Part shown: positions 2,095 through 35,059 of the stretch, piece after piece | Numbering within the stretch: position 1 is the first letter of the stretch | Layout: every line of letters begins with the position of its first letter | From: Gemmatimonadota bacterium | Lineage (GTDB): Bacteria > Gemmatimonadota > Gemmatimonadetes > Gemmatimonadales > Gemmatimonadaceae | Assembly (NCBI GenBank): GCA_023249305.1 | Contig: JAHFCU010000024.1 | Location: 1 to 36,553, forward strand | Direction: 5' to 3' | Length of the DNA: 36,553 nt | Notes under the pieces: generated by a model | The model's input: the letters and a program-made list of their open reading frames with translations, nothing else | Told to the model about the DNA's origin: nothing | Database searches by the model: none | Program-made: the position numbers and the translations under genes

Positions 2095-2115
2095 GGTGGA
2101 TGGCAGATGGTCGAG
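2095..2115 (+). repeat. Heptad repeat element 1 (single array, three units)
   Basis: Three head-to-tail 7-base units, GGTGGAT, GGCAGAT and GGTCGAG, fit the GGTNGAN family also seen at 3327-3387, 27591-27663, 28012-28060 and 35000-35059. No opposite-strand array follows here. A 16-base stretch (2099-2114) is identical to the start of the element at 27591. It sits between tRNA-Gly and tRNA-Thr(GGT). Confidence 0.75.
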
Positions 2116-2118
2116 CAG

Positions 2119-2152
2119 CGCCGCGAGCGGTTGAACAGTGCGGCGGTTTTTT
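2119..2152 (+). terminator. Possible weak intrinsic terminator or attenuator inside the tRNA cluster
   Basis: CGCCGC (2119-2124) can pair with GCGGCG (2140-2145) across a 15-base loop, followed by G and six T residues (2147-2152). The loop is large and the genes downstream (tRNA-Thr, rpmG, secE, nusG) have no other obvious promoter, so partial termination is the most it could do. It could also be chance. Confidence 0.35.
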
Positions 2153-2170
2153 GTCGGCAAGGCCGGAGTT

Positions 2171-2243
2171 GCTGGCGTAGCTCAGTCGGTAGAGCACACC
2201 CTTGGTAAGGGTGAGGTCATCGGTTCAATCCCGATCGCCAGCT
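2171..2243 (+). tRNA. tRNA-Thr (anticodon GGT)
   Basis: 73 bases; acceptor GCTGGCG pairs with CGCCAGC, anticodon stem CACCC/GGGTG encloses loop TTGGTAA with anticodon GGT (reads ACC/ACT). T stem ATCGG/CCGAT. The 3' CCA is not encoded. Last of the four tRNAs; rpmG begins 100 bases later. Confidence 0.95.
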
Positions 2244-2343
2244 CTGGTTGGTGCGGCAACGCAGTGGCAGGACGTCATATGGCACGGAGTGCCACGGGGG
2301 CGGTCAACCGTGAACCGCCAATTCTGCTGGACCTGAGGACACA

Positions 2344-2496
2344 ATGCCCCGCGACAAGATCATTCTCGCGTGCAACGACTGTAAGAATCGCAACTACTTC
2401 ACCACGAAGAACAAGCGCTTGCATCCGGAGCGCGTCGAGTGGAAGAAGTACTGCCCGCGCTGCAACAAGCACGTGGTCCACAAGGAGACGAAGTAA
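2344..2496 (+). CDS. rpmG: 50S ribosomal protein L33
   Basis: A short gene of 50 residues beginning [13 protein letters not shown]. Two CxxC pairs, C10/C13 and C37/C40, form the zinc ribbon of the cysteine-containing L33 type. L33 binds 23S rRNA near the E site. The position immediately before secE-nusG is a common arrangement for rpmG in many phyla. Stop TAA at 2494-2496 is 2 bases before the secE start. Confidence 0.95.
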
Positions 2497-2498
2497 CC

Positions 2499-2717
2499 AT
2501 GGCCGTCGAGGTGGTGCCGCAGGGTCCCGCTCGCCGGGTCGTCGCGTTCTATCATGACGTGATGGCCGAGATGCGGCGCGTGACCTGGCCGGACGTGCCG
2601 CAGGTGCGCCAGCTCTCGGTGGGCGTTGTTCTGCTCTCGCTCTTCATTGGCGCGGTCATCGCGCTGATGGACGTCGTGCTCCAGCAGTTGCTGGTGCGCC
2701 TCCCCTCGGCGTTCTAG
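2499..2717 (+). CDS. secE: Preprotein translocase subunit SecE
   Basis: 72 residues, the short one-membrane-helix form. A basic cytoplasmic part contains the conserved stretch FYHDVMAEMRRVTWPDVPQVRQ (split here around residues 17-38), followed by one hydrophobic helix at about residues 41-63. SecE clamps SecY in the inner membrane. The ATG at 2499 was chosen because it follows the rpmG stop by 2 bases and gives the standard N-terminal length; an upstream in-frame start would overlap rpmG. Confidence 0.95.
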   Translation: MAVEVVPQGPARRVVAFYHDVMAEMRRVTWPDVPQVRQLSVGVVLLSLFIGAVIALMDVVLQQLLVRLPSAF

Positions 2718-2725
2718 GAGCGTTC

Positions 2726-3268
2726 GTGACGCATCGGTTTTACGCGATCCAGACGACCTCTGGACACGAGAACAAGGTGCGGTCGCTGATCCAGCGGAAG
2801 ATTGACGCGGATCCGGCGGCCCCCGAGGAGCGTGCCATCCGGCAGGCGCTCGTGCCCACGCAAGAGGTGGTCGAGATCAAGAACGGCAAGAAGGTCACCG
2901 TCGAGCGCAAGGTGTACCCGGGCTACGTGCTGGTGGAGATGCAGCCGAGCGAGGACACGCTGCACGCGATCGGCAGCATCCAGGGCGTCATCAAGTTCGT
3001 CGGCAAGGACCGCGATCCGCAGCCGCTGCGGGACGACGAAGTGCGCCGCCTCCTCGGCATCGCCGACGAAGCGGAAGAAGCGCCGCCGAAGGAGGAGATT
3101 CCGTTCCTCGTCGGGCAGGCGGTGGCCATCAGTGATGGTCCGTTCACGGACTTCAACGGCGTGGTCGAGGAAGTGATGCCCGACAAGGGCAAGGTGCGGG
3201 TGTCGGTGTCGCTGTTCGGGCGGCCGACGTCCGTGGAGTTGGATTACCTGCAGTTGCGGGCGCACTAG
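2726..3268 (+). CDS. nusG: Transcription termination/antitermination factor NusG
   Basis: 180 residues. The NGN domain (about 3-105) includes FYAIQTTSGHE and VYPGYVLVEM; a KOW domain occupies about 129-160 (FLVGQAVAISDGPFTDFNG). NusG binds the clamp of RNA polymerase and links it to Rho or to the ribosome through S10. Start is GTG at 2726, preceded by AGGAG at 2716-2720 that overlaps the secE stop, so secE and nusG are translationally close. NusG is the last gene before a 242-base gap. Confidence 0.97.
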   Translation: MTHRFYAIQTTSGHENKVRSLIQRKIDADPAAPEERAIRQALVPTQEVVEIKNGKKVTVERKVYPGYVLVEMQPSEDTLHAIGSIQGVIKFVGKDRDPQPLRDDEVRRLLGIADEAEEAPPKEEIPFLVGQAVAISDGPFTDFNGVVEEVMPDKGKVRVSVSLFGRPTSVELDYLQLRAH

Positions 3269-3326
3269 GCGGAGCGCCCACGGCGGCGTGGATCCTCAAC
3301 CACGTCGACCGCTAAGCCGCCAAAGA

Positions 3327-3387
3327 GAGGGTAGACGGTAGAAGGTAGATGACGGCATCTACCATCAACCTTCCACCATCTACCCTC
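3327..3387 (+). repeat. Heptad repeat element 2 (inverted pair of arrays)
   Basis: Left arm 3327-3351 contains GGTAGAC, GGTAGAA, GGTAGAT. Right arm 3356-3387, read on the minus strand, contains GGTAGAT, GGTGGAA, GGTTGAT, GGTAGAT. The arms form a 25-bp imperfect hairpin with three mismatches, all at unit positions 4 or 7. The right arm has one unit more than the left. Confidence 0.85.
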
Positions 3388-3468
3388 ACTGAAGGACGCC
3401 GTTGCACGCCGGTTGATGGACGCGTGCTTGAGGAGCACCACGACCTCACTAATCACACCGTGGGAGTC

Positions 3469-3491
3469 GGCGGAGCGATTGGCGCTCCGCC
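3469..3491 (+). promoter_or_regulatory. Hairpin in the rplK 5' leader
   Basis: A perfect 9-bp stem (3469-3477 with 3483-3491) with loop ATTGG lies 9 bases upstream of the rplK Shine-Dalgarno. It is a candidate for the leader structure through which L1 or another ribosomal protein represses the L11-L1 mRNA; that role is inferred from position only. Confidence 0.45.
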
Positions 3492-3510
3492 CGAACGTCA
3501 GAGGAGCACC

Positions 3511-3933
3511 ATGGCAAAAAAGGTCATCGGTTTCGTCAAACTGCAGATTCCTGCAGGCAAGGCGAATCCGGCCCCACCGGTCGGCACCGCGCTCGGCCCG
3601 CAGGGGATCAACATCATGGCATTCTGCAAAGAGTTCAACGCTCGGACGCAGGGCCAGGATACGATCCTCCCGGTCGAGATCACGATCTTCGCCGACAAGT
3701 CTTTCACCTTCATCCTGAAGACGCCGCCTGCGGCGATTCTCATCATGAAGGAACTGGGACTGGAGAAGGGGTCGGGTCAGCCCAATCGCAACAAGGTTGG
3801 TGTCATCAGCAAGGCGCAGATCAAGAAGATTGCCGAGCTCAAGATGCCGGATCTCAACTGCGATTCCCTCGAGTCGGCTATGGCGATGGTTGCCGGTGCC
3901 GCGCGCTCGATGGGCGTGGAGGTCAAGGACTGA
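3511..3933 (+). CDS. rplK: 50S ribosomal protein L11
   Basis: 140 residues, standard length. The N-terminal domain has the proline-rich [19 protein letters not shown] stretch around residues 20-38 that contacts 23S rRNA at the GTPase-associated centre and forms the thiostrepton-binding cleft. The C-terminal domain carries the rRNA-binding [17 protein letters not shown] segment. The ATG at 3511 is preceded by GAGGAG (3501-3506). The TGA stop overlaps the rplA ATG by one base, indicating translational coupling. Confidence 0.98.
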
Positions 3934-4625
3934 TGCCCGGCACCCATGGCAAGAAGTATCGTGCGGCCGCGTCGAAGCGCGTGATTGAGCAGGCCTACGC
4001 GGCCAAGCAGGCGCTGGAGCTCGTGAAGACGGGCGCGTACGCGAAGTTCGACGAGACGGTCGAGGTGGTGGTGCGCCTCGGCGTCGACCCGCGGCACGCC
4101 GATCAGGCCGTGCGCGGCACGGTCGTCCTCCCCGCGGGGACGGGCGCCGTCGTGCGCGTGCTCGTCATCGCCGTCGGCGACAAGGCCAAGGACGCCGAGG
4201 CCGCCGGCGCCGACTACGTCGGCACCGAGTACATCGCGAAGATCAAGGAAGGCTGGACCGAGTTCGACGTCATGATTGCCACGCCGGACCAGATGGGCCA
4301 GGTCGGCCAGCTGGGCAAGGTGCTCGGCCCTCGTGGGCTGATGCCGAATCCCAAGGCGGGCACGGTGACGATGAACATCGGCCAGGCCGTGAAGGAGACG
4401 AAGGCGGGCAAGATCGAGTTCCGCGTCGATAAGGGCGGCAATGTGCACGCCAAGATCGGCAAGGTCTCGTTCGGGCTCGACGCCCTCGAGACGAATTTCA
4501 CCGCGTTCATGGACCAGATCGTCCGGTCCAAGCCGGCCGCGGCCAAGGGCGTCTACGTGAAGAACCTGTCGGTCTCGTCGACGATGGGCCCTGGGGTGAA
4601 GGTCGACACCACCCCTTACCGGTAA
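3933..4625 (+). CDS. rplA: 50S ribosomal protein L1
   Basis: 230 residues, typical. L1 forms the mobile stalk at the E site and usually represses its own mRNA. Conserved elements include [21 protein letters not shown] near residue 35-55 (shown in part) and [15 protein letters not shown] near residues 130-145. The start ATG overlaps the rplK stop (TGATG). rplJ follows after 6 bases. Confidence 0.98.
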
Positions 4626-4631
4626 CGAGCC

Positions 4632-5117: not shown

Positions 5118-5182
5118 TTCCCCAGGCGTCCGCCTGACTCACAACGCCCCAGGATTCCTGGGAGACAACGGAGAACGAAACC

Positions 5183-5569: not shown

Positions 5570-5583
5570 GGCCGGGGGTTGTC

Positions 5584-5608
5584 GGCGGCGCGGGTTGTCC
5601 GCGCCGCC
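5584..5608 (+). promoter_or_regulatory. rplL-rpoB intergenic hairpin (attenuator or RNase processing site)
   Basis: A perfect 10-bp GC stem (5584-5593 with 5599-5608) with loop GTTGT lies 14 bases after the rplL stop. There is no T tract, so it is not a classical intrinsic terminator. In E. coli the rplL-rpoB gap holds a partial terminator and an RNase III site that set the ratio of ribosomal protein to polymerase transcript; this hairpin is in the same place and could do the same. Confidence 0.55.
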
Positions 5609-5762: not shown

Positions 5763-10328
<4,566 letters not shown>

Positions 10329-21100: not shown

Positions 21101-22561
21101 ATGCGTCTGCCCATCATTGACATCCTGCTTGCCGCGACGCTGCTCGCGGTGAGCCTCGTGCTTGGCGTCGGATGGTACTGGCGCCGCTGGGTGCGGCGCG
21201 CCGCGCGCCGCGCACACCGCCGGTTCGGCGCGCGCATCGACCGCTTCAAGCTGACGGGGAAGCGCTACATCACCGAGGCGCTGCTCAACGACCCCGACGT
21301 CACGGAAGCGGTGGGCGTCCATGCGCGCGAACACGGCGTGCCGGAGCGCGAGGTCTGGGGAAGGGTGCGGGGGTACTTGGCTGAGATCATTCCCGCATTC
21401 TCGCTGCTCATGTACTACCGGTTCGGCTATGCGATGTCGAAGGCGCTGCTCTCGCTGTTCTACAAGGTGTCGGTGGACTATGTGCGGCGCGTAAGCATCG
21501 AGGAACTTCCGCGCGAGTCCATCGTGGTGTATCTGCTGAACCACCGCAGCAACGCCGATTTCGTCGTGGCCAGCTACGCGCTCGCGGGCGAGGTGGCGAT
21601 CTCGTACGCGGTGGGGGAGTGGGCGCGCGTCTTTCCGCTGGAATACCTCTTCAAGTCCTTCGGCTCGTACTTCATTCGCCGGCGCTATCGCGAGCCGCTC
21701 TACCACCGCGTGCTCGAGCGCTATGTGCAGCTCATCACGCGCAACGGTGTGACGCAGGGCATCTTCCCGGAAGGTGGCCTCACGCGCGACGGGCATCTGC
21801 GCCCCGCCAAAGTGGGGTTGCTCGACTACGTGCTGGGCGTCGCCCGCGAGCCGGGGTTCGCCGAACGCCTGCACGTGATTCCCGTGGCGATCAACTACGA
21901 CCGCGTGCTCGAGGACCGCACGCTCCTGCGTGAGTTGCGCTCCGCCGATGGCGGCGACCGCCCCGGGCGCCTCGCGCAGTTGGGCCAGGTGCTTCATTAC
22001 ATGGGCTGGAATGTGGGCCGAGTACTGTCGCGCCGGTGGAAGCGATACGGACGCGCGGCAGTCGTGATCGGCGAGCCGATTCCGGTGAAGCCGTGGCTCG
22101 ACGCGCTCGCGACTGGCGGCACGCCGCTCTTCGATCGGCCGCGCTCGGAGCGGCTCGGTGCCGTGCAGGAGTTCTGCGATCGCATGATGGAACGCATCGG
22201 AGCGATCATACCCGTGACGCCGGTGCCGCTTGCGTGTGCTGCGCTGCAGACGTTTGATGCCGACTTCGTGCCGCGCCAGCGCCTGCTTGACCGCATGGCC
22301 GAGTTGCGCGACGCGCTCGTCGAGCGCGAGGCCCGGTTGTTGCGTGCCGACTGCCGCGTGGAGGAAGTCTGGGATCGCGCGTATCGGATGCTGCGCATGC
22401 GCCGCGTGGTGGCGCGAGCGGGAGAAGGCTACCTGATCCTGCCGCGGGGGCGGGAGCTCGTGAGCTACTACGCCAACTCCATCGCGCACCTCTGCGGCGA
22501 GTTCGAGAGCGCGGTGAAGGCGCGTGACCAGTTGCCGGTCGACAGCCTGATCGGGTTGTAG
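21101..22561 (+). CDS. Glycerol-3-phosphate acyltransferase-like protein (PlsB family)
   Basis: 486 residues with all four acyltransferase blocks: NHRSNAD (147-153, block I, catalytic His and Asp), GSYFIRR (188-194, block II), FPEGGLTRDGHLRPAKVG (222-239, block III) and IPVAINYD (260-267, block IV). An N-terminal membrane helix lies at about 6-26. The likely role is acylation of glycerol-3-phosphate at the inner membrane, the first step of phospholipid synthesis. It is much shorter than E. coli PlsB (about 800 residues), so it may be a compact PlsB or a related lysophospholipid acyltransferase. The rpsL promoter begins directly after its stop. Confidence 0.82.
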   Translation: MRLPIIDILLAATLLAVSLVLGVGWYWRRWVRRAARRAHRRFGARIDRFKLTGKRYITEALLNDPDVTEAVGVHAREHGVPEREVWGRVRGYLAEIIPAFSLLMYYRFGYAMSKALLSLFYKVSVDYVRRVSIEELPRESIVVYLLNHRSNADFVVASYALAGEVAISYAVGEWARVFPLEYLFKSFGSYFIRRRYREPLYHRVLERYVQLITRNGVTQGIFPEGGLTRDGHLRPAKVGLLDYVLGVAREPGFAERLHVIPVAINYDRVLEDRTLLRELRSADGGDRPGRLAQLGQVLHYMGWNVGRVLSRRWKRYGRAAVVIGEPIPVKPWLDALATGGTPLFDRPRSERLGAVQEFCDRMMERIGAIIPVTPVPLACAALQTFDADFVPRQRLLDRMAELRDALVEREARLLRADCRVEEVWDRAYRMLRMRRVVARAGEGYLILPRGRELVSYYANSIAHLCGEFESAVKARDQLPVDSLIGL

Positions 22562-22565
22562 GCGG

Positions 22566-22594
22566 TTGACCCGAGGCGGTGGACCCGCTACTTA
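22566..22594 (+). promoter_or_regulatory. Promoter of rpsL-rpsG
   Basis: TTGACC (22566-22571), then 17 bases, then TACTTA (22589-22594). The -10 resembles that of fusA (TACTTT), both preceded by GC. The -35 lies in the first copy of a 14-base tandem duplication (22561-22588, two mismatches). The box is 5 bases past the plsB stop codon. Confidence 0.5.
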
Positions 22595-22667
22595 TTCAAG
22601 TCTGTTCCGTGCCACCCATTCGGGGTGATCCACGTAGAATCAGGTTCACGAACAGCACCAGGATACG

Positions 22668-23051
22668 ATGCCGACGATCAACCAACTCGTCCGGCAGAGC
22701 CGCCGAAATGTCGCCCGGAAGGAAAAGGCGCCGGCTCTGAAGGCGAACCCGTTCAAGCGTGGCGTGTGCACACGAGTGTACACGACCACCCCCAAGAAGC
22801 CGAACTCCGCGTTGCGAAAGGTAGCGCGCGTGCGCCTGACGAACGGCTTCGAAGTCACCGCTTACATTCCCGGCGAAGGCCACAACCTGCAGGAGCACTC
22901 GATCGTGCTCATTCGCGGCGGCCGCGTGAAGGACCTGCCGGGCGTGCGCTACCACATCGTGCGCGGCAAGCTCGACGCCTCGGGCGTCAACGGCCGCAAC
23001 AAGAGCCGGTCGAAGTACGGCACCAAGAAGCCGAAGGCCGGGGGGAAGTAA
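22668..23051 (+). CDS. rpsL: 30S ribosomal protein S12
   Basis: 127 residues beginning [14 protein letters not shown]12 sits at the decoding centre. The streptomycin-relevant lysines are wild type: K43 and K44 in [12 protein letters not shown] and K88 in [10 protein letters not shown], so a streptomycin-sensitive genotype is expected. An AGGA motif lies about 6 bases before the ATG. rpsG starts 3 bases after the stop. Confidence 0.98.
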
Positions 23052-23054
23052 GCC

Positions 23055-23525
23055 ATGAGCCGCCGCAAATCCGCCGTCAAGCGCTCGATCCTGCCGGACG
23101 CGCGCTACGATTCGCAGACCGTTTCGAAGTTCATCAACGTGCTGATGTACGCCGGCAAGAAGTCCACCGCCGAGCGCATTTTCTACGGCGCGATGGACCT
23201 CGTCGAGAGCCGCACGAGCCAGCCGGGCGTCAATGTGTTCAAGCAGGCGCTCTCAAACCTCAAGCCGGTCGTCGAGGTGAAGAGCCGCCGCGTTGGCGGT
23301 GCCACCTATCAGGTGCCCGTCGAAGTGCGTCCCGAGCGCCGCACCGCGCTCGCCATGCGCTGGCTGATTTCGTTCTCGCGCGACCGCAATGAAAAGTCGA
23401 TGGCCGAGAAACTCGCCGCCGAGGTGATCCTGGCATCGAAGGGCGAGGGCAACGCCATCAAGAAGAAGGAAGACACGCACCGCATGGCCGAAGCGAACAA
23501 GGCGTTTGCGCATTATCGCTGGTAG
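23055..23525 (+). CDS. rpsG: 30S ribosomal protein S7
   Basis: 156 residues, the standard length. It opens [20 protein letters not shown] and has [24 protein letters not shown] in the middle, a region that binds 16S rRNA and nucleates the 30S head. It forms a two-gene operon with rpsL and is followed 21 bases later by a strong terminator. Confidence 0.98.
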
Positions 23526-23546
23526 CGAGACGGCAGACACGCGATG

Positions 23547-23583
23547 GATGCCCCGGGCTCATGCTCGGGGCGTCTTTCTTTAT
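23547..23583 (+). terminator. Intrinsic terminator of rpsL-rpsG
   Basis: A 12-bp stem (23547-23558 with 23563-23574, two G-T pairs) with loop TCAT is followed by TTTCTTTATT. It is the most classical terminator of the window and separates rpsL-rpsG from fusA, which are one operon in many bacteria. Confidence 0.88.
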
Positions 23584-23585
23584 TG

Positions 23586-23720
23586 GAACGAGGAGGAGGT
23601 AGAGGCTTGAGCACGGGCGAGGAGAGGTGGAACGGGCGAGGGCGCTCAGTTCCTCGTTCCGCCCCTCAGCCCCCGTTCCGTAGCCTGTACCTCCTCCTCG
23701 TTCGACCTCTCCTCGCCCGT
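23586..23720 (+). repeat. Crossed inverted repeats upstream of fusA
   Basis: Segment A (23586-23607) is complementary to A' (23682-23703) at 21 of 22 positions. B (23613-23628) is a perfect 16-base complement of B' (23705-23720). C (23629-23636) is a perfect complement of C' (23672-23679). The order is A-B-C-C'-A'-B', so A/A' and B/B' cross. The left half is purine-rich and the right half pyrimidine-rich. Confidence 0.8.
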
Positions 23721-23762
23721 CCCGCATTCCCCCTCCCGCATTCCCCCTCCCGCATTCCCCCT
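23721..23762 (+). repeat. Three perfect tandem copies of a 14-mer
   Basis: The unit CCCGCATTCCCCCT occurs at 23721-23734, 23735-23748 and 23749-23762, with a partial fourth (CTCGCA). The minus strand has runs of 3 and 5 G residues separated by 1 and 5 bases, meeting the usual rule for an intramolecular quadruplex. It ends 10 bases before the fusA -35 box. Confidence 0.92.
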
Positions 23763-23772
23763 CTCGCAAGCC

Positions 23773-23800
23773 TTGACACCACAAGGAATTGCGCTACTTT
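23773..23800 (+). promoter_or_regulatory. Promoter of fusA
   Basis: A perfect TTGACA (23773-23778), 16 bases, then TACTTT (23795-23800). Initiation would fall near 23806, leaving a leader of about 409 bases before the fusA ATG. The downstream tuf and rpsJ may depend on it, as no other promoter is evident before them. Confidence 0.6.
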
Positions 23801-23804
23801 TCTC

Positions 23805-24214
23805 AGGCTACGGTGAATTGCAGGTCATCGCGTCGTTGTAGCCTTCCGCGTCGAAGAGGTTTTCGTGCGGACGACCTGGGGGACTGCGCCCCGGCATCTA
23901 TGGGCCCGCCAACTGACTGGTTGATGTCGTCAGCGCGGGGGCGAAGGACCAAGCCGACCGATGACGCACGGGAGCCGTTGTGGCCCGCGCCGAGGTTTCC
24001 GAAAAGCAACGCAGGACAACTCAACGTCGGGGCTAGGAGAGACCGGCGCGCCGAGGGTCCCCACCCGCGCAGCAGTGGCGAGTGTACCCGGCGATGGCGG
24101 ATGGACACCGGCCCTTTTCCCTCGTGGAGCGGGGCGCCAGGTCCAGCCGCGTTTTCGTTGGCTCAGGCCTCAATCCCGCTCCGCGCGGGTGTCATTCATC
24201 GGTTCCTTCTCTTC
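23805..24214 (+). promoter_or_regulatory. Candidate structured 5' leader RNA of fusA
   Basis: Helices visible by eye: P1 AGGCTAC (23805-23811) with GTAGCCT (23838-23844); P2 GACGAC (23870-23875) with GTCGTC (23926-23931), enclosing a 6-bp hairpin (23876-23881 with 23889-23894) and CAAC/GTTG around 23910-23923; P3 GCGCGGG (23933-23939) with CCCGCGC (23984-23990), stacked directly on P2; and CCCGC/GCGGG (24175-24189) near the start codon. A pyrimidine-rich stretch, not an SD, precedes the ATG. It matches no RNA family I know (not tmRNA, RNase P RNA or SRP RNA). It could be a regulatory leader or a processed small RNA. Confidence 0.45.
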
Positions 24215-26341
<2,127 letters not shown>

Positions 26342-26380
26342 AACCCCGTACCACCTTTTCACCGCACAGGACCATATCCC

Positions 26381-27583
<1,203 letters not shown>

Positions 27584-27590
27584 GGACAGC

Positions 27591-27663
27591 GATGGCAGAT
27601 GGTCGATGGTAGACGGTAGACGGCGCCGCCGTTTCTACCGTCCACCATCCACCCTCTACCGTC
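27591..27663 (+). repeat. Heptad repeat element 3 (inverted pair of four-unit arrays)
   Basis: Left array: GGCAGAT, GGTCGAT, GGTAGAC, GGTAGAC (27594-27621). After an 11-base spacer the right array on the minus strand reads GGTAGAG, GGTGGAT, GGTGGAC, GGTAGAA (27660 back to 27633). The arms pair over 28 positions with five mismatches (unit positions 3, 7, 4, 4, 7). It begins 7 bases after the tuf stop. Confidence 0.87.
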
Positions 27664-27696
27664 ATTGTCCAAGCAACCAATCGCAGAGACCACACC

Positions 27697-28005
27697 ATGG
27701 CAGGCAAGATTCGCATCCGGCTGAAGGCCTTCGACCACGCCGTCATTGATCAGGCGAGCGCGGACATCGTCCGCACCGCCGAGAAGACGGGGGCGCAGGT
27801 GAGCGGCCCGATTCCGCTTCCGACGAAGACGCAGCGGTGGACGGTGCTCCGGTCGCCGCACGTGGACAAGAAGTCGCGGGAGCAGTTCGAGCTGAAGACG
27901 CACAAGCGCATGATCGACATCCTCGATTCACGCGCACAGACGGTGGACGCGCTCACCAAGCTGGACCTGCCGGCGGGCGTGGACGTCGAAATCAAGGTGG
28001 AGTGA
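27697..28005 (+). CDS. rpsJ: 30S ribosomal protein S10
   Basis: 102 residues beginning [19 protein letters not shown]. It is a 30S head protein that also serves as the NusE antitermination factor and the contact of Nus[14 protein letters not shown], near residues 53-65, marks the extended loop. The nearest upstream element is the heptad palindrome; no strong SD is evident. A 139-base gap follows. Confidence 0.98.
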
Positions 28006-28011
28006 ACTACG

Positions 28012-28060
28012 GACGGTAGACGGTAGATGGTAGACGGTAGACGTCGCCATTCCGACCGTC
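28012..28060 (+). repeat. Heptad repeat element 4 (four-unit left array, remnant right arm)
   Basis: Units GGTAGAC, GGTAGAT, GGTAGAC, GGTAGAC run from 28015 to 28042. The right arm is reduced to about one unit: ACCGTC at 28055-28060 pairs with GACGGT in the left arm. It lies in the rpsJ-rplC gap, starting 6 bases after the rpsJ stop. Confidence 0.8.
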
Positions 28061-28144
28061 TCCCCCTGCAGGGCGCTCACAGTCCAACGGCCATTCAGCC
28101 GCGCGCATCGGGCGCCGGTGGCCGCGACTAAACCCGAGGAAGAT

Positions 28145-28828
28145 ATGATCGGAATCATTGGTAAGAAGCTGGGGATGACCCAGATCTTCAACGAGGCGGG
28201 GCAGCAAATCCCCGTGACCGTTGTCGAAGCGACGCCGAATCCCGTCACGAAGGTGACGAGCAAGGAGACGGCGGGCTTTGCCGCGGTTGAGCTGGGCTAC
28301 GGTGCGCAGAAGACGCGCCGAGCCAGCAAGAAAGGGGAGCGCGAGCCCCGTGGTGTGCGGGCGCCCAAGGCGGAAATCGGGCACGCGACAAAGGCTGGAC
28401 TCGAGGCGGCGCCGCGGGTGCTGCGGTCGGTGCGCCTCGATGACGCGCCGGGCAAGAACCCCGAAGTCCCGGCGTACAACGTCGGCGACGTGATCACCGT
28501 GGGCATCTTCGCCCAGGGCGAGATCGTGAAGGTGACGGGGACGTCGAAAGGGCGCGGGTTCCAGGGTGTCGTAAAGCGCCACGGCATTGGCGGCGGTCCA
28601 AACACGCACGGCAACACGAAGCACCGGCGCCCGGGTTCGGTGGGCCCCGGCACGGACCCGTCGCGCGTGATCAAGGGCAAGCGCATGCCGGGCCACTTCG
28701 GCGCCGAGCGCCACACGCAGATCAACCTCCGGGTCGAGAAGATCGACGCGGATCGCCATCTCTTGTACCTCCGCGGTGCGGTGGCCGGGCCGAAGAATGG
28801 CCTCGTGCTCGTCCGCAAGCAGGGCTAA
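28145..28828 (+). CDS. rplC: 50S ribosomal protein L3
   Basis: 227 residues from MIGIIGKKLGMTQIF. L3 is a primary assembly protein near the peptidyl-transferase centre. The central GTSKGRGFQGVVKRHG and the HTGNTKH-like loop (THGNTKHRRPGSVG) are conserved. ATG 28145 was preferred to the in-frame start at 28118 because GAGGA (28136-28140) lies 4 bases before it and the family starts here. rplD follows after 3 bases. Confidence 0.97.
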   Translation: MIGIIGKKLGMTQIFNEAGQQIPVTVVEATPNPVTKVTSKETAGFAAVELGYGAQKTRRASKKGEREPRGVRAPKAEIGHATKAGLEAAPRVLRSVRLDDAPGKNPEVPAYNVGDVITVGIFAQGEIVKVTGTSKGRGFQGVVKRHGIGGGPNTHGNTKHRRPGSVGPGTDPSRVIKGKRMPGHFGAERHTQINLRVEKIDADRHLLYLRGAVAGPKNGLVLVRKQG

Positions 28829-28831
28829 TCC

Positions 28832-29689
28832 ATGGCTGATACGATGCAACTCGAAGCGGCTGCCTATACCGCGCTGGGGACGCCGCGCGAGAAGGTGAGC
28901 CTGCCGCACGCGACGTTTGACGGCACGGTGAACGTGCCGGTGATGCAGCAGGCGGTGAAGGCGATGCTGGCGAACCAGCGCCAGGGGACCGCGTTCACGA
29001 AGACGCGCGGACTGGTGATTGGCGGCAACCAGAAGCCGTGGAAGCAGAAGGGGACCGGTCGCGCCCGTCAGGGCTCGACGCGCGCCCCGAACTGGCCGGG
29101 CGGCGGCACGGTGTTCGGCCCGCACGGCGATCGCAACTACTCGCAGGCGGTGCCGCGTCAGGTGCGCCAGCTCGCGCGCCGGAGCGCGTTCAACGCCCGC
29201 GCCCGCGAGAACGCCGTGTTGGTGATCGACCGGTTCGCGTACGAGGCGCCGAAGACGTCACAGCTGCACCAGCTGCTCGCACGACTCGGCGTCGCGCACC
29301 AGAACGCGCTGATCCTGACCGACGGCGTGAAGCCGAACGTCTACCTGAGCGGCCGCAACCTGCCGAAGGTGCGGGTGATGCCGTACAGCGACGCGTCGAC
29401 GTACGACCTGCTGTGGTCGGACGTGGTGCTGGTTGAGGCGTCGGCCATCGGCCAGGTGCTCTCGCCGGTGACGGAGAAGGCGGTGGAGAAAGTGAAGGTG
29501 AAGAAGACCGCCGCGCCGAAGACGCCGAAGGCGAGGCACGCAGCCGAGACGGCGAAGAAGGAGACGGCGAAGAAGGCGGTGAAGGCCGCCGCGAAGAAGA
29601 AGGCGCCGGCGAAGAAGGCGGCCGCCAAACCTGCGGCGAAGAAGGCACCGGCCAAGAAGGCCGCGGCGCCGAAGAAGAAGGGGAAGTAG
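28832..29689 (+). CDS. rplD: 50S ribosomal protein L4 with a long Lys/Ala-rich C-terminal tail
   Basis: 285 residues against about 205 in most bacteria. The globular part with the exit-tunnel loop (QKPWKQKGTGRARQGSTRAP, residues 67-86) and the C-terminal VLVEASAIGQVLSPV (198-213) is normal. From about 216 to 285 it continues as a Lys/Ala/Pro low-complexity tail resembling histone H1-type tails. The tail is in frame and ends 3 bases before rplW, so it is part of the gene. L4 also regulates the S10 operon in E. coli. Confidence 0.96.
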   Translation: MADTMQLEAAAYTALGTPREKVSLPHATFDGTVNVPVMQQAVKAMLANQRQGTAFTKTRGLVIGGNQKPWKQKGTGRARQGSTRAPNWPGGGTVFGPHGDRNYSQAVPRQVRQLARRSAFNARARENAVLVIDRFAYEAPKTSQLHQLLARLGVAHQNALILTDGVKPNVYLSGRNLPKVRVMPYSDASTYDLLWSDVVLVEASAIGQVLSPVTEKAVEKVKVKKTAAPKTPKARHAAETAKKETAKKAVKAAAKKKAPAKKAAAKPAAKKAPAKKAAAPKKKGK

Positions 29690-29692
29690 CCG

Positions 29693-29980
29693 ATGCCATC
29701 CACGTATCGCACGATCGTGCGCCCCATCGTCACCGAGAAGAGCTCAGCGGCGTTCCAGGACCGGGGCGAGTACACGTTTGAGGTCCATCCCGACGCGAAC
29801 AAAGCGGCCATCAAGCAGGCCATCGAGTCGCTGTTCGGGGTGCATGTCACCGGCGTCTGGACGTCGCAGCAGCGCGGGAAGCCGCGCCGCGTGGGGCAGA
29901 GCATCGGGCTCCGTCCGCGCTGGAAGAAAGCCATCGTAAAGCTCCGCGCGGGCGACACGATCGAGATCTTTGAGGGCTAA
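29693..29980 (+). CDS. rplW: 50S ribosomal protein L23
   Basis: 95 residues. Begins [18 protein letters not shown], with the conserved [22 protein letters not shown] (22 residues, partly cited) near 26-47. L23 lies at the tunnel exit and docks trigger factor and SRP. It is 3 bases after rplD and 2 bases before rplB. Confidence 0.97.
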
Positions 29981-29982
29981 CC

Positions 29983-30816
29983 ATGGGCATCCGTCAATTC
30001 AAGCCGGTGACGGCTTCCTCGCGCTTCCGCTCCGTGTCGGACTTCGATGCGATCACGCGGACGACGCCGGAGAAGTCGCTCACCGAACCGCTGAAGAAGT
30101 CGGGCGGCCGCGACAACCACGGGCACATCGCCATGCGGCGCCGTGGCGGCGGCCACAAGCGGAAGTACCGCGTCATTGACTTCAAGCGCAACAAGCACGG
30201 TGTGGCGGCCACGGTCACGCAGATCGAGTACGATCCCAACCGCTCGGCGCGCATCGCGCTGGTGAAGTACGCGGACGGTGAGCTGCGCTACATCATCCAC
30301 CCAAAGGGACTGGCGGTGGGCGACGCGGTGACGTCGGGGCCCGGCGCGGACGTGCGCACGGGCAACGCGATGCCGCTGAAGGAAGTGCCGCTCGGCACGG
30401 CGGTGCACAACGTCGAGCTCATTCCCGGGAAGGGCGGCCAGATGGCGCGCTCGGCCGGCACCTCGCTGCAGGTGGTGGCGAAGGAAGGCGACTACGTGAC
30501 GCTGCGCATGGCGTCGAGCGAGATGCGCCTGGTGCACGGCAACTGCCTGGCGACGATCGGCGAAGTGGGGAACGCCGAGCACGAGCTCGTCTCGTGGGGC
30601 AAGGCGGGGAAGATGCGGTGGAAGGGGCGCCGCCCGAAGGTGCGCGGCGAAGTGATGAACCCGGTGGATCATCCGCACGGCGGCCGCACACGCGGCGGCC
30701 GGAACGTGGTGAGCCCGTGGGGCAAGAAGGAAGGCGTGAAGACGCGCAACAAGAAGAAGCCGTCGCAGCGCCTGATCGTCCGCGGCCGGAAGCGCGGCAA
30801 GGCCACGCAGAGCTAA
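29983..30816 (+). CDS. rplB: 50S ribosomal protein L2
   Basis: 277 residues, typical. L2 is needed for subunit joining and peptidyl transfer. The conserved NPVDHPHGG loop with the key histidine lies near residues 226-234. The basic C-terminus ([17 protein letters not shown]) binds rRNA. Start ATG 2 bases after the rplW stop. Confidence 0.98.
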
Positions 30817-30831
30817 CCGGGGCAACCATCA

Positions 30832-31227
30832 ATGGCACGCAGCATCAAGAAGGGCCCGTTCATCCAGGAAAGCCTGATGAAGAAGGTGCAGGGGATGAAC
30901 TCCCGCAACGAGAAGAAGGTCGTCAAGACGTGGTCGCGCGCGAGCACGGTGCTGCCCGATTTCGTCGGGCACACGTTCGCGGTGCACAACGGGAACAAAT
31001 TCATCCCGGTGTACGTGACCGAGAACATGGTGGGGCACAAGCTCGGCGAGTTTGCGCCGACGCGCCTGTTCCGCGGCCACACGGCGGCGGGGAGCAAGGC
31101 GGCGGCGGAAGCGGCCGCCGAAGCGGCGGCCAAGAAGGCGAGGCCGGGTCCGGCCGCGGCGGCCGCGCCCGCTGCCGCTGCTCCCGCTGCATCGCCGGCT
31201 GCGCCCCCGGCGAAGGGAGGGAGGTAA
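30832..31227 (+). CDS. rpsS: 30S ribosomal protein S19 with an Ala-rich C-terminal tail
   Basis: 131 residues against about 92 usually. The core ([18 protein letters not shown] to [12 protein letters not shown], residues 1-83) is normal and complete. About 47 further residues are Ala/Pro/Lys-rich and probably disordered. S19 sits in the 30S head at the subunit interface. The tail ends 3 bases before rplV. Confidence 0.96.
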
Positions 31228-31230
31228 GCC

Positions 31231-31590
31231 ATGGCCGAGGCACGCGCGATTCAGCGCACGGCGCGCCAGAGTCCCTACAAGATGCGGCTGGTCGTTGACC
31301 AGATCCGTGGCTTGGGGGTGAACGACGCGCTCTCGCTGCTGCAGTTCTCCAAGAAGCATGCCGCGAAGCAGATCTCGAAGGTGCTGAAGAGCGCCGTCGC
31401 GAATGCGGAGCAGGCCGCCCGGACGACGAACGCGTCGCTGGACGTGGATCAGCTGTACGTGAAGGTGGCGACGGTGAACGAGGGACCGAAGCTCAAGCGG
31501 TGGACGCCGGCGGCGATGGGTCGCGCGACTCCCGTCCACAAGCGGACCAGCCATGTGGAGATCATCGTGGCCGAGAAGGAAGGGCGCTAA
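31231..31590 (+). CDS. rplV: 50S ribosomal protein L22
   Basis: 119 residues. The tunnel-lining hairpin corresponds to [20 protein letters not shown] (residues 90-109), the site where macrolide resistance changes occur in other bacteria. No such change is evident. The TAA stop overlaps the rpsC ATG by one base. Confidence 0.97.
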
Positions 31591-32261
31591 TGGGACAGAA
31601 AACGAATCCGATCGGCTTCCGCCTCGGCGTCACGAAGGAGTGGCGGTCGAAGTGGTTTGCCACGAAGGACTATCCGCAGCTGCTGAAGGAGGATGACCTC
31701 CTCCGCAAGTACCTGCGCCTCCGCCGGTTCCCGGGGAACGCGAGCCCGGCGATCGCGGACATCAACATCGACCGGAAGCCGGGCAAGGTGGTGGTGACCC
31801 TGCACACCGGGCGGCCGGGCGTGGTGATCGGCAAGAAGGGCGAAGAGGTGGAGAAGCTGAAGTCCGAGCTCCAGCAGATCACGGGCAAGGACGTCGGCAT
31901 CAACGTCGAGGAGATCAAGCGGCCGGAGATCGAGGCGCAGCTCGTCGCCGACAACATCGCCGCCCAGCTCGCGCAGCGCATCTCGTTCCGGCGCGCGATG
32001 AAGCGCGCCGTGCAGAGTGCGATGCGGATGGGGGCGGAAGGGATCAAGGTGAAGTGCGGCGGGCGCCTGGGCGGCGCCGAAATCGCGCGCGTGGAGGGGT
32101 ACCGCGAAGGGCGGGTGCCGCTGCACACGCTGCGTGCCGACATCGATTACGCGACCAGCACGGCGAAGACGACCTTCGGGACGATCGGCGTGAAGGTCTG
32201 GATCTTCAAGGGCGAAATGGTGGAAGGCCGTCGCGGCAACACCTACTCGTCCGACGCGTGA
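31590..32261 (+). CDS. rpsC: 30S ribosomal protein S3
   Basis: 223 residues starting [14 protein letters not shown]. The KH domain has its GxxG loop in VVIGKKG (78-84). S3 lies at the mRNA entry channel and contributes helicase activity. The start overlaps the rplV stop (TAATG), so the two are coupled; the frame is open upstream inside rplV but the family start is clear. Confidence 0.98.
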
Positions 32262-32272
32262 GGCGCTGACCG

Positions 32273-32695
32273 ATGCTGAGTCCGAAGCGAGTCAAGTTCC
32301 GCAAGATGTTCAAGGGGCGCACGCGCGGTCTGGCGACGCGCGGGGCCGAAGTGTCGTTCGGGCACTACGGCCTGCAGGCGCTCGAGCCGGGATGGGTATC
32401 GAACCGGCAGATTGAGGCCGCGCGCGTGGCGCTGACGCGTCACGTCAAGCGCGGGGGCAAGGTGTGGATTCGCATCTTCCCCGACAAGCCGATCACGAAG
32501 AAGCCGGCCGAGACGCGCATGGGCAAGGGCAAGGGCGCGCCGGAGGGCTGGGTGGCGGTCGTGAAGCCCGGCCGCGTGCTGTTTGAGATCGAAGGCGTCG
32601 ACAAGACGATTGCCCAGAAGGCGATGGCACTGGCCGCCGCGAAGCTGGGCATCCGCACGAAGTTCGTGGCTCGCGAGGAGGCGCCTACCGCATGA
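32273..32695 (+). CDS. rplP: 50S ribosomal protein L16
   Basis: 140 residues beginning [20 protein letters not shown]16 organises the A-site region of the 50S subunit. The conserved [20 protein letters not shown] stretch is at about 74-93. Its TGA stop overlaps the rpmC ATG (ATGA). Confidence 0.98.
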
Positions 32696-32898
32696 AGGCC
32701 GGACAAATTCGCGAGCTGAGCGGCGCCGAGATTCAGGCGCGCATCAAGGGGCTCGAAGAAGAGCGGTTCCGCCTGCGGTTCCGGCGGGCGACCGAACCGT
32801 TGGAAGATCCGCTGCGCCTGCGCGTAATCCGCAAGGACATCGCGCGCCTGAAGACCGTGCTGCGCGAGAAGGCCGCGGGCGCGGCCGCTGGCCGCTGA
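32692..32898 (+). CDS. rpmC: 50S ribosomal protein L29
   Basis: 68 residues of two long helices, with [20 protein letters not shown] and [15 protein letters not shown] typical of L29. It sits at the tunnel exit beside L23. It starts inside the rplP stop codon (4-base overlap). Confidence 0.95.
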
Positions 32899-32913
32899 CC
32901 CGAGGAGTGACCC

Positions 32914-33195
32914 ATGGCTGAACAGACGAAGACTGAAGCGGCTGCCCGCCCGACGCGCAAGGTGCGCACGGGCAAGGTGGTCAGCGACAAGATGCAGAAG
33001 ACGGTGGTGGTCGCGATCGAGCGTCGCGTCCCGCACCCCGTGTACGGCAAGATGGTGACCCGCACGAAGCGGTTGAAGGCCCACGACGAGCAGAACTCGG
33101 CGAAGGTCGGCGACACGGTGCGGATCACGGAGACCCGCCCGCTGTCCAAGGACAAGCGGTGGCGCGTGGTCGAAATCCTCGAACGCGCGCAGTAG
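32914..33195 (+). CDS. rpsQ: 30S ribosomal protein S17
   Basis: 93 residues, with a slightly longer N-terminus (about 15 extra residues) before the OB fold [38 protein letters not shown] is the conserved rRNA-binding part. A GAGGAG-like motif precedes the ATG. Confidence 0.97.
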
Positions 33196-33207
33196 GAGGA
33201 GCGGGCC

Positions 33208-33576
33208 ATGATTCAACAGGAATCCGTCGTGAAGGTCGCGGACAACAGCGGCGCCAAGCGCGCGCTGGTGATCCGCGTGCTCGGCGGCACGCGGCGCCGC
33301 TACGCGCGCCTGGGTGACCAGGTGATCGTGGCGGTGAAGGACGCGCTGCCGAACGGAACGGTGAAGAAGTCGGACGTCGCGCGCGCCGTGGTGGTGCGCA
33401 CGGTGAAGGAGACGCGGCGCAAGGACGGGAGCTACATCCGGTTCGACGAGAACGCCGTGGTGATCATTGACGACAAGGGCGAACCGCGGGCGACCCGCAT
33501 CTTCGGCCCCGTGGCGCGCGAACTGCGCGAGCGGCGCTACATGAAGATCGTCTCGCTGGCACCGGAGGTCTTGTAA
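33208..33576 (+). CDS. rplN: 50S ribosomal protein L14
   Basis: 122 residues starting [20 protein letters not shown], the family N-terminus. L14 forms inter-subunit bridges. Preceded by AGGAG in the rpsQ stop region. rplX starts at the base directly after the stop. Confidence 0.98.
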
Positions 33577-33975
33577 ATGCGCGTGCACACACATCGCAAG
33601 ACGCTGGGCACGCGGCTGACGCGGCGCCACGCGATCAACGCGGAACGCGAGCGGCTGCCCGTGACGAAGGGCGACACCGTGCGCGTGATGCGGGGAGAGG
33701 ACAAGGGCAAGGAAGGCAAGGTGATCCGCGTGCTCCAGAAGAAGGGGCGCATCGTGATCGAGGGCGTGAACATCGTGAAGAAGCACCGCAAGGCGCGCAA
33801 CGCGAACGAGCAGTCGGGGATCATCGACATGCCGGCGCCGGTGCACGTCTCCAACGTGATGCTGCTCGATCCGAAGTCGGGGCTGCCGACGCGGACGCGC
33901 CGCCGCATTGACGCGGACGGCACGAAGGAGCGCATCAGCGTGAAGAGCGGCGACGCGATTCCGCGCAACCGCTAA
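33577..33975 (+). CDS. rplX: 50S ribosomal protein L24
   Basis: 132 residues, about 25 more than the common form, the excess lying N-terminal to the KOW motif ([20 protein letters not shown], about 29-48). L24 starts 50S assembly. The alternative is a later start, but this ATG abuts the rplN stop and no other in-frame ATG fits before KOW. Confidence 0.94.
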
Positions 33976-33992
33976 GGGCGAGGACCAGACTG

Positions 33993-34673
33993 ATGGCGAC
34001 GAAGGAAAAGACAGCCGCCGGCAAGGGCGGCGGAAAGGGCGGACGGGGCGACAAGGGGAGCTCGATGATCCCCAGCGCCCACAAGGGCGCGAAGCTTCCG
34101 GTCGTGCCGCCGCGGCTGCGCGAGTACTACGCGCAGACCGTGCGGCCGCGGCTCGCGACGCAGTTCGGCCTGAAGAACCCGCACGAGGTGCCGCAGCTCG
34201 AGAAGATCGTGCTCAACGTCGGTATGGGTGAGGCGATCAAGCAACCGAAGGTGCTCGACACCGTGGTGGACGAACTGGCGGTGATCACGGGCCAGCGGCC
34301 GGTGCGGAAGAAGGCGAAGAAGTCGATCGCCAACTTCGGCCTGCGCGCCGGGCAGGAAGTGGGCGTCAGCGTGACGCTGCGCGGCGCGCGGATGTGGGAG
34401 TTCCTCGACCGCTTCGTGTCGGCGGCGCTGCCCCGCGTGCGCGACTTCCGCGGCCTCTCGACGCGCTCGTTCGACGGGCGCGGCAACTACTCGATGGGCG
34501 TGAAGGAGCAGATGATCTTCCCCGAGATCAACTACGACCAGGTCGAGCAGATCCACGGGATGGACATCACGTTCGTCACGACGACGACCAAGGACGACCA
34601 GGCGCTCGCGCTGCTGCGCGAACTCGGCATGCCGTTCCGCGGCGACGAGAAGCCAGTCGTGGTCACGCACTAA
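33993..34673 (+). CDS. rplE: 50S ribosomal protein L5 with a Gly/Lys-rich N-terminal extension
   Basis: 226 residues against about 180. The first roughly 40 residues are Gly/Lys-rich and disordered; the normal protein begins around [19 protein letters not shown] (residues 41-59). The core has [13 protein letters not shown] and [11 protein letters not shown]5 carries 5S rRNA. A later ATG (M25) could start a shorter form. rpsN begins 13 bases after the stop. Confidence 0.94.
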
Positions 34674-34686
34674 CCGGACCGACTCC

Positions 34687-34992
34687 ATGGCCAAGAAGAG
34701 CAGCATCGAGAAGAACGAGCGCCGCAAGCAGACGGTTCAGCGCCACGCCGCGAAGCGGAAGGCGCTGAAAGCGGTGCTCCAGAATCCCAACGCGTCGGAC
34801 GACGAGAAGGTGGCCGCGCAGTTCGCGCTGCAGAAGCTGCCGCGCAACTCGTCGAAGACGCGGATCCGCAACCGCTGCCAGATGACCGGCCGCTCGCGCG
34901 GATTCGAGAGCGCGTTCGGACTGAGCCGCATCGCGCTGCGCGAGATGGCGAACAACGGGCTATTGCCCGGCGTGCGAAAGGCAAGTTGGTAA
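34687..34992 (+). CDS. rpsN: 30S ribosomal protein S14 (zinc-free long form)
   Basis: 101 residues, the long C-minus type as in E. coli: only one cysteine (in NRCQMTGR) and no CxxC pairs. [11 protein letters not shown]-like [19 protein letters not shown] is the conserved end. Located between rplE and rpsH as expected. A 128-base gap follows. Confidence 0.97.
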
Positions 34993-34999
34993 GGACGCC

Positions 35000-35059
35000 G
35001 ACGGTTGACGGTTGACGGTGGACGGTTGATCAACCGTCGACCCTCCACCGTCCACCGTC
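35000..35059 (+). repeat. Heptad repeat element 5 (60-base palindrome)
   Basis: Two 30-base arms meet with no spacer at the centre of TTGATCAA. Left: GGTTGAC, GGTTGAC, GGTGGAC, GGTTGAT. Right, minus strand: GGTGGAC, GGTGGAG, GGTCGAC, GGTTGA. The arms differ at four positions, three at unit position 4 and one at 7. It lies 7 bases after the rpsN stop; the rpsH SD GAGGAG (35101-35106) lies beyond. Confidence 0.9.

What the first reader, a model, noticed from the sequence alone, without database searches (positions are those of the whole stretch)
2095..35059. A dispersed family of 7-base units GGTNGAN, mostly arranged as opposed arrays between core genes
Five intergenic loci (2095-2115, 3327-3387, 27591-27663, 28012-28060, 35000-35059) contain about 30 units. 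Bases 1, 2, 5 and 6 (G, G, G, A) are invariant, base 3 is T in all but two, while 4 and 7 vary. In three loci a left array is followed by an array in the opposite orientation. Among the 12 mismatches between arms, 7 are at unit position 4, 4 at position 7 and 1 at position 3; about 2 in 7 would be expected at 4 and 7 by chance. So the unit, not base pairing, is conserved. That argues against an ordinary RNA hairpin under compensatory selection, and for either a repeat-propagating process or a modular protein-binding array. Heptanucleotide tandem repeats (STRR) are known in cyanobacteria; I know no described function for this one.
Basis: partly seen in the sequence, partly recalled or inferred. 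Interest (0 to 1): 0.85.

Follow-up and report, generated by a model that had tools for sequence, protein, structure and literature searches.

The report
Seven-base-repeat hairpins between bacterial genes
Between many genes this bacterium carries short runs of about four seven-base units, often as two runs facing each other that could fold into a hairpin; the places are kept between related species while the unit changes across the genome, which suggests gene-end elements written in a species-specific repeat whose job is not yet proven.

Summary
In detail: 30 GGTNGAN/GGCNGAN units in five gaps, three as opposed arrays. The host belongs to the Gemmatimonadota. All 11 held genomes of its genus have 104-463 overlapping hits of (GGNNGAN)4. 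Opposed pairs always read inward: 41 against 0 in the genus, 19 against 0 in an 80-locus cross-phylum set. That does not exclude hairpins: sites are conserved in the genus, the unit alphabet is set genome by genome, and in other genera the tuf-rpsJ gap holds a strong stem of unrelated sequence in 13 of 14 gaps of 40 nt or more, against 3 of 31 other gaps. Best reading: gene-end stem-loops built from a genome-specific heptamer, REP-like in place, without U-tract. Against it: about half of arrays are single, and only 3 of 12 array-bearing gaps in genus-wide stretches fold strongly. Closest published kind: GGGNATC repeats of Xanthomonas/Nostoc, read there as G-quadruplexes; the GTGAATC dialect of a related genus has no G-tract. 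New variant of a known kind; function unproven.

The parts
2095..2115 (+). 3-unit array (GGTGGAT GGCAGAT GGTCGAG) in the tRNA-Gly/tRNA-Thr spacer, single arm; weakest member
   Evidence: similar units in 1 of 7 relatives
3330..3350 (+). G-arm, 3 units, nusG-rplK gap
   Evidence: 8 of 9 genus genomes with both genes found have at least two consecutive exact units in this gap, the ninth (G008) a degenerate array
3357..3384 (-). C-arm, 4 units, opposed to 3330-3350, 6-nt loop
   Evidence: stem z -4.2
27594..27621 (+). G-arm, 4 units (first is GGC), 10 nt after the tuf stop codon
27633..27660 (-). C-arm, 4 units, opposed, 11-nt loop, before rpsJ
   Evidence: stem z -7.5
28015..28042 (+). single G-arm, 4 units, 9 nt after the rpsJ stop codon; 9 of 10 genus genomes have two or more consecutive exact G-units here, none has two consecutive exact C-arm units
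   Evidence: here fold z is only -1.8
35003..35030 (+). G-arm, 4 units, 10 nt after the rpsN stop codon
35029..35056 (-). C-arm, 4 units, overlaps the G-arm by 2 nt in a palindromic centre, before rpsH
   Evidence: stem z -5.0

Best explanation
The arrays are the arms of intercistronic and gene-end stem-loops built from a tandem heptamer whose sequence is specific to the genome. A transcript leaving a gene meets, about 10 nt after the stop codon, a G-rich arm of about four units, then a loop, then the C-rich arm. The G-arm is made first and captures the C-arm as it emerges. The stem then marks the transcript's 3' side: it stabilises the upstream mRNA end and/or attenuates transcription between genes that need different levels (tuf | S10, nusG | rplK, rpsN | rpsH), as REP/BIME hairpins do in enterobacteria. 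It has no U-tract, so it is not an ordinary intrinsic terminator. Single arms are half-elements or pair imperfectly downstream. SHOWN: units, inward order, location, site conservation, unit change, concerted alphabets, predicted stems at the ribosomal sites. INFERRED: folding in the cell, 3'-end function, G-arm-first logic. NOT EXPLAINED: how dispersed loci come to share one dialect, and what single arrays do.
For: Location: in the sampled stretches 58 of 73 arrays lie in co-directional gaps, 7 convergent, 1 divergent, 7 inside ORF calls, against 190/34/68 co/conv/div among gaps of 60 bp or more; 36 of 72 adjoining 3' gene ends are within 15 nt, 6 of 60 adjoining 5' ends (orthologous ribosomal arrays count several times). 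Order: 41 '+-', 0 '-+', 5 '++', 4 '--'; 19/0/5/3 in cross-phylum loci (8 of the 19 come from G010's own record and overlap the genus data); 7/0 within 130 nt for G044's heptad and G011's octad. Sites: 35 of 39 orthologous gaps have at least two consecutive exact units. Stem kept while sequence is replaced: 13 of 14 tuf-rpsJ gaps of at least 40 nt in other genera have z < -3, with heptads GGGCGAT, TTGGTGG, GTGAATC, octads, or no clear repeat; 12 of the 13 have a G-richer 5' arm. Control: 3 of 31 other co-directional gaps of 40-200 nt in the same stretches. Single arrays pair better with the inward than the outward flank (Wilcoxon p 0.0005).
Against: In the genus-wide stretches only 3 of 12 co-directional gaps (40-200 nt) with an array have z < -3 (median -0.9), against 7 of 101 without (median -0.24): away from the ribosomal sites strong stems are the minority. 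About half of arrays are single (59 single, 62 paired), and only 6 of 57 singles have a strong inward partner (4 an outward one). Arms do not covary at variable positions (p 0.126), and G:U is no commoner than A:C at position 4 (16 and 15, pairs not oriented by transcript). In the MAG's own array loci 6 of 34 intergenic arrays are in divergent gaps, and only 12 of 30 adjoining 3' ends against 6 of 38 5' ends lie within 15 nt. Other genera lack a strong stem at rpsN-rpsH in 10 of 17 gaps and at rpsJ-rplC in 12 of 14; 4 of 18 tuf-rpsJ gaps are too short for one. Stems in the genus are significant partly by construction. No RNA data.
Confidence: 0.4

Rival explanations
1. Unit-reading factor: each heptamer is a duplex-DNA (or RNA) site for a sequence-specific protein encoded in trans (nucleoid protein, polar roadblock, uptake receptor). 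The genome-wide dialect follows that protein's specificity, as DNA-uptake-sequence dialects are said to follow their receptor (recalled).
For: Fixed bases are far better conserved than bases 3, 4, 7; no arm covariation; arrays in one genome are more alike (distance 0.339) than orthologous arrays in different genomes (0.467), 0 of 2000 genome-label permutations reach it; no significant block copying; single arrays are common and also point inward (34 of 48 non-tied); most array-bearing gaps in genus-wide stretches do not fold strongly.
Against: At tuf-rpsJ other genera have stem-loops of varied sequence; clustering at gene 3' ends and depletion from divergent gaps in the sampled stretches suit a transcript role better. 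No candidate protein was sought or found.
Confidence: 0.26
2. Tolerated microsatellites: heptamer slippage makes arrays wherever gaps allow; opposed pairs and placement reflect where they do least harm.
For: Some arrays are long and homogeneous (14 GGTAGAG units in G006; up to 17 units in other genomes); adjacent identical units exceed genome-wide shuffles (38 of 151 against 18.6 in G000); heptamers are reported as over-represented SSRs in many bacteria (PMC4692102, introduction).
Against: Exact array lengths peak at 4 (3:24, 4:43, 5:9) rather than decaying; fixed bases are far better conserved than variable ones; sites conserved across the genus; local slippage does not by itself give genome-wide concerted alphabets or a 41:0 order.
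Confidence: 0.2
3. G-quadruplex elements, as proposed for GGGNATC/GGGGAYT in Xanthomonas and Nostoc: four G-tracts on the G-strand fold into a quadruplex near gene ends.
For: Four-unit preference, G-rich strand near the 5' neighbouring gene, few in divergent gaps in the sampled stretches: the statistics that paper reports. Some relatives do have G3 tracts: position 3 is G in 14 of 28 sampled units of G009 and 8 of 11 of G002.
Against: In the window's MAG position 3 is G in 6 of 166 sampled units, leaving GG tracts with 5-nt loops, and the conserved GA is unexplained. Dialects of the same tandem, inward-paired form have no fixed GG: GTNNTGA in G044, GTGAATC in G015.
Confidence: 0.07

Closest known systems
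G-rich heptamer repeats GGGNATC (Xanthomonas) and GGGGA(C/T)T (Nostoc), Rehm et al. 2015, PMC4692102 (seen: abstract, sections 3, 10, 13, 14, 16 and search passages)
   Same: Seven-base tandem units with variable positions; preference for four units; dispersed and intergenic; convergent pairs (70 and 75 cases in two xanthomonads, few in Nostoc); closest to the 5' neighbouring ORF whatever its direction; few between divergent ORFs; 83% of repeats at the same gene context in the related species.
   Different: The window's unit has GG and GA fixed and rarely a G3 tract; unit alphabets change in concert by genome; the same site holds other heptads, octads or plain stems in other genera; arm covariation was tested and not found; some Gemmatimonadota dialects have no fixed GG, so the quadruplex reading does not carry over.
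TAACTGA heptamer repeats of Beggiatoaceae, MacGregor 2015, PMC4679880 (seen: abstract, sections 12 and 16)
   Same: Intergenic heptamer tandem arrays, some inside ribosomal protein operons including upstream of L3; patchy across phyla.
   Different: Mostly just upstream of start codons, direct repeats with one indirect repeat; here they tend to start just after stop codons and about half are in opposed pairs.
REP/BIME elements (seen: abstract starts of PMC2817692 and PMC3116915 in a search listing; passages of PMC13289151)
   Same: Dispersed intergenic elements in many copies, hairpins near gene ends.
   Different: Tandem heptads instead of one conserved palindrome; Y1 transposase (PF01797) not found in 9 of 11 genus genomes.
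Cyanobacterial STRR heptanucleotides (name recalled; heptanucleotides in Calothrix are mentioned in PMC4692102)
   Same: Tandem heptanucleotides in a bacterium.
   Different: Not compared here beyond the period.

Membership tests
Rehm-type G-rich heptamer repeats | tandem 7-nt unit, mainly intergenic, excess of four-unit arrays | tested here: met
   exact lengths peak at 4; with one fixed base allowed to differ 4:44 and 5:53; 66 of 73 sampled arrays intergenic
Rehm-type G-rich heptamer repeats | convergent pairs and G-strand close to the 5' neighbouring ORF | tested here: met
   41:0 order; 46 inward to 15 outward, 5 ties, in samples
Rehm-type G-rich heptamer repeats | under-represented between divergent ORFs | tested here: inconclusive
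   1 of 66 intergenic arrays in the sampled stretches, but 6 of 34 in the MAG's own array loci
Rehm-type G-rich heptamer repeats | G3+ tract in each unit allowing a three-tetrad quadruplex | tested here: not met
   window's MAG: G at position 3 in 6 of 166 units sampled outside the window; some relatives (G002, G009) do have GGG units
REP/BIME with RAYT | REP-associated Y1 transposase in the genome | tested here: not met
   PF01797 not found in 9 of 11 genus genomes (several incomplete), found in G006 and G010
REP/BIME with RAYT | single conserved palindrome of about 20-40 nt (recalled) | tested here: not met
   arms are tandem heptads with independent variable positions
Intrinsic terminator | GC-rich hairpin followed by a U-tract | tested here: not met
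   none of the 11 matches in 22500-36553 (10.8 expected) is at an array; covers three of the five loci
DNA uptake sequence dialect | uptake bias and cognate receptor | not testable with these tools
   only the dialect behaviour is seen
Known structured RNA (Rfam 15) | match at gathering score | tested here: not met
   only four tRNAs in the window

The most novel reading that the evidence does not exclude
There is a general, unnamed class of bacterial gene-end elements in which each genome uses its own seven-base (sometimes eight-base) word, in about four tandem copies and inward-facing pairs, at fixed intercistronic sites, and rewrites the word at all sites together. That implies a trans-acting reader or writer still to be found, and means the published quadruplex explanation covers only some dialects.
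Probability: 0.35. Interest if true: 0.8.

Novelty: new variant of a known kind. Interest (0 to 1): 0.57.

Why it matters
Heptamer repeats in bacteria have been described piecemeal with different explanations (quadruplex, translational regulator, microsatellite). Showing that site and inward-paired form persist while the word is replaced, and that arrays within a genome share an alphabet, separates what is conserved (place, period, orientation, at some sites the stem) from what is not (sequence). It gives two direct tests: does the element set RNA 3' ends, and what makes a genome's dispersed arrays change together.

Tried and rejected
REP/RAYT propagation: PF01797 not found in the MAG or in 9 of 11 genus genomes. 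Block copying between loci: shared heterogeneous unit tuples not above within-array shuffles (G000 k=3: 11 against 7.2, p 0.116; G010 13 against 7.6, p 0.066). Fine pairing selection between arms: p 0.126. Quadruplex as a general cause: dialects without fixed GG. U-tract terminators. Rfam: no hit other than tRNAs. Reversed-pattern control of the genome search: not clean, since arrays match it in another phase. Literature: searches; from titles and abstract starts, none of the papers listed is about GGNNGAN repeats, and none holds all of Gemmatimonadota, tandem repeats and intergenic. That covers only this open-licence library and these terms.

It strengthens the stem at tuf-rpsJ (3 of 31 control gaps) but shows that most array-bearing gaps in genus-wide stretches are not strongly folded (3 of 12); I lowered the main reading from 0.45 to 0.40 and raised the unit-reader rival from 0.22 to 0.26.

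Rows dropped before counts: one search kept 36 of 39 genome-by-locus arrays (three with fewer than 3 exact units). One search left out gaps under 40 nt, over 400 nt or with N, and cut the nusG gap to the 95 nt holding the array. One search counted 121 arrays, of which 10 lay inside ORF calls and 2 at stretch edges. One search was run with all 9 species and with 7. One search counted opposed pairs in part of the listings (G044 C1 and C2, G015 C32, G011 C72); the rows left out show no opposed neighbours close by. The sampled stretches are the window, contig starts, S10 neighbourhoods and a few inner contig stretches, not a random genome draw. Pairs are not independent: orthologous loci and arrays with two partners count more than once. 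The MAG's own array loci were chosen because they matched (GGTNGAN)3. Genes come from a codon-usage caller of my own trained on the window, so start codons are approximate.
Full report
WHAT WAS CHECKED. The five loci are present as described: 30 units, three opposed pairs, one single arm after rpsJ and a weak three-unit array between two tRNA genes. No array of three or more units arose in 100 order-3 Markov simulations of the window. The window is contig C22 of a 2.51 Mb MAG, 78.6% complete. A same-genus genome, G010, is identical in sampled sequence to record VHBQ01, 'Gemmatimonadetes bacterium' (79 of 79 100-mers of L124), so the host is placed in the Gemmatimonadota.

THE ELEMENT. In 130 arrays of at least three exact units from the genus, the G-strand is preceded by a half-unit GA (82% G, 82% A) and has no other strong shared flank, so the form is GAN(GGNNGAN)n. 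Exact array lengths in 53 stretches are 3:24, 4:43, 5:9 and few longer; a Markov control over the same stretches gives 2:83, 3:1, so two-unit hits are at chance level and four exact units is the mode. If one fixed base per unit may differ, lengths 4 (44) and 5 (53) are about equally common. At nusG-rplK, anchored outside the array, fixed bases are 0.93 identical over seven species, variable bases 0.45, flanks 0.70 and 0.82; with two register-shifted species kept the values are 0.83, 0.41, 0.67 and 0.84.

DISTRIBUTION. All 11 held genomes of the genus have 104-463 overlapping hits of (GGNNGAN)4; 26 of 60 relatives, these 11 included, and 37 of 150 genomes drawn over the phylum, 5 of them from the genus, have any. 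Outside the genus the words differ by genome, for example GGTCGAG in G015 and GGGAGAA or GGATGAT in G056.

PLACE AND ORDER. In the sampled stretches 58 of 73 arrays are between co-directional genes, 7 convergent, 1 divergent and 7 inside ORF calls; gaps of at least 60 bp number 190, 34 and 68. Arrays start close to gene 3' ends (36 of 72 within 15 nt, against 6 of 60 for 5' ends). The MAG's own array loci are less clean: 6 of 34 intergenic arrays are divergent, and 12 of 30 3' ends against 6 of 38 5' ends are within 15 nt. Opposed neighbours within 100 nt are 41 '+-' and 0 '-+' (27 and 0 if both arms need three units), so the G-rich strand always points inward. In the cross-phylum loci it is 19 and 0, of which 8 come from G010's own record; for G044's heptad and G011's octad 7 and 0 within 130 nt. 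Of 121 arrays, 62 are paired and 59 single.

PAIRING. At variable positions arms match no better in register (0.581) than out of register at the same locus (0.560) or between loci of one genome (0.563); permutation p 0.126. So pairing is not tuned base by base. The fixed bases alone give 4 of 7 pairs, and position 3 pairs in 81%, so a stem can form anyway. Single arrays complement their inward flank somewhat better than their outward one (p 0.0005), but only 6 of 57 strongly, against 4 outward.

ORTHOLOGOUS SITES. The tuf-rpsJ, rpsJ-rplC, rpsN-rpsH and nusG-rplK gaps have at least two consecutive exact units in 35 of 39 genus gaps; rpsJ-rplC has no two consecutive exact C-arm units in any of ten. 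The unit differs: GGTAGAC, GGCAGAT, GGGAGAT, GGAAGAC. Arrays within a genome resemble one another (mean distance 0.339) much more than orthologous arrays between genomes (0.467), which are hardly closer than unrelated ones (0.488); 0 of 2000 permutations for genome, p 0.0345 for locus. The word therefore changes in concert across dispersed loci, without significant block copying.

THE SAME SITE IN OTHER GENERA. I fetched the S10 region of 20 genomes outside the genus, chosen from the 55 of 60 with an S10 match. tuf and rpsJ were both found in 18, and 14 of those gaps are at least 40 nt. Thirteen of the 14 fold with z of about -3.0 or lower, in unrelated sequences: heptads (GGGCGAT in G035, TTGGTGG in G041, GTGAATC in G015), octads (G011, G037, less clearly G047), and stems without clear repeat (G046, G043, G039, G044, G033, G036, G056); 12 of 13 have a G-richer 5' arm. 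At rpsN-rpsH 7 of 17 and at rpsJ-rplC 2 of 14 do so. As a control, 3 of 31 other co-directional gaps of 40-200 nt in the same stretches reach z < -3 (median -0.11). In the genus the four sites fold strongly in 32 of 39 gaps, partly by construction. In genus-wide stretches it is 3 of 12 gaps with an array against 7 of 101 without, so the strong stem is not general. Three of the foreign words were searched in 60 genomes: GTNNTGA x4 occurs in G044 (27 hits), G031 (23) and G022 (7); GTAGGACN x3 in G011 and G034; GTGAATC x3 only in G015.

INTERPRETATION. At tuf-rpsJ the conserved thing is a stem-loop just after the stop codon; in several genera it is made of that genome's heptamer. I therefore read the paired arrays as intercistronic and gene-end stem-loops made of a genome-specific word, acting on RNA 3' ends or read-through as REP hairpins do. 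Passages of PMC13289151 describe E. coli REPs as hairpins that stabilise RNA 3' ends without terminating. This has no RNA data behind it here. The single arrays, the weak folding of most array-bearing gaps elsewhere, the lack of fine covariation and the concerted alphabets leave much room for a unit-reading factor, which may act together with the stem.

KNOWN OR NEW. Rehm et al. 2015 (PMC4692102) describe the same statistics for GGGNATC and GGGGAYT: four units, convergent pairs, closeness to the 5' neighbouring ORF, few divergent. The present family is a variant of that kind and not a member of those families. What is added: the GG..GA unit, concerted dialects with conserved sites, replacement by other words or plain stems in other genera, the test against arm covariation, and a dialect (GTGAATC) in which a quadruplex is not expected.

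Noticed in passing
window 28081-28129 (rpsJ-rplC gap); same gap in 24 genomes: A conserved motif AGTCCAA-stem...stem-YGACT lies upstream of rplC: 20 of 24 gaps of at least 60 nt have AGTCC...[CT]GACT enclosing a stem of 4 or more pairs (best of several small offsets), with compensatory replacements (CGGCC/GGCCG, CTGTC/GACAG, CTGGC/GCCAG, CTGCC/GGCAG, CGGAGC/GCTCCG, CGGTC/GACCG). No Rfam match up to E 5. Candidate ribosomal-protein leader RNA; it may explain why this gap has only a G-arm.
   Followed up: partly
L059, L060, L063, L065 (tRNA-Gly/tRNA-Thr spacer): Relatives have purine-rich tandem stretches (GAGAAACAACA-like) in the tRNA spacer where the window has a heptad array.
   Followed up: no
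window 23546-23575: A 13-pair hairpin followed by a T-rich stretch after rpsG looks like an ordinary intrinsic terminator, unlike the heptad hairpins.
   Followed up: no
genus arrays: Arrays have internal polarity: the first (5' on the G-strand) unit has C at position 3 in 36% against 18% in middle units, and the last unit has T at position 7 in 43% against 23% (98 arrays of 4 or more units).
   Followed up: no
G011, G034, G037: Some Gemmatimonadota have octamers (GTAGGACN in G011 and G034, TGCGTGGC in G037) in the same kind of arrays or hairpins.
   Followed up: partly
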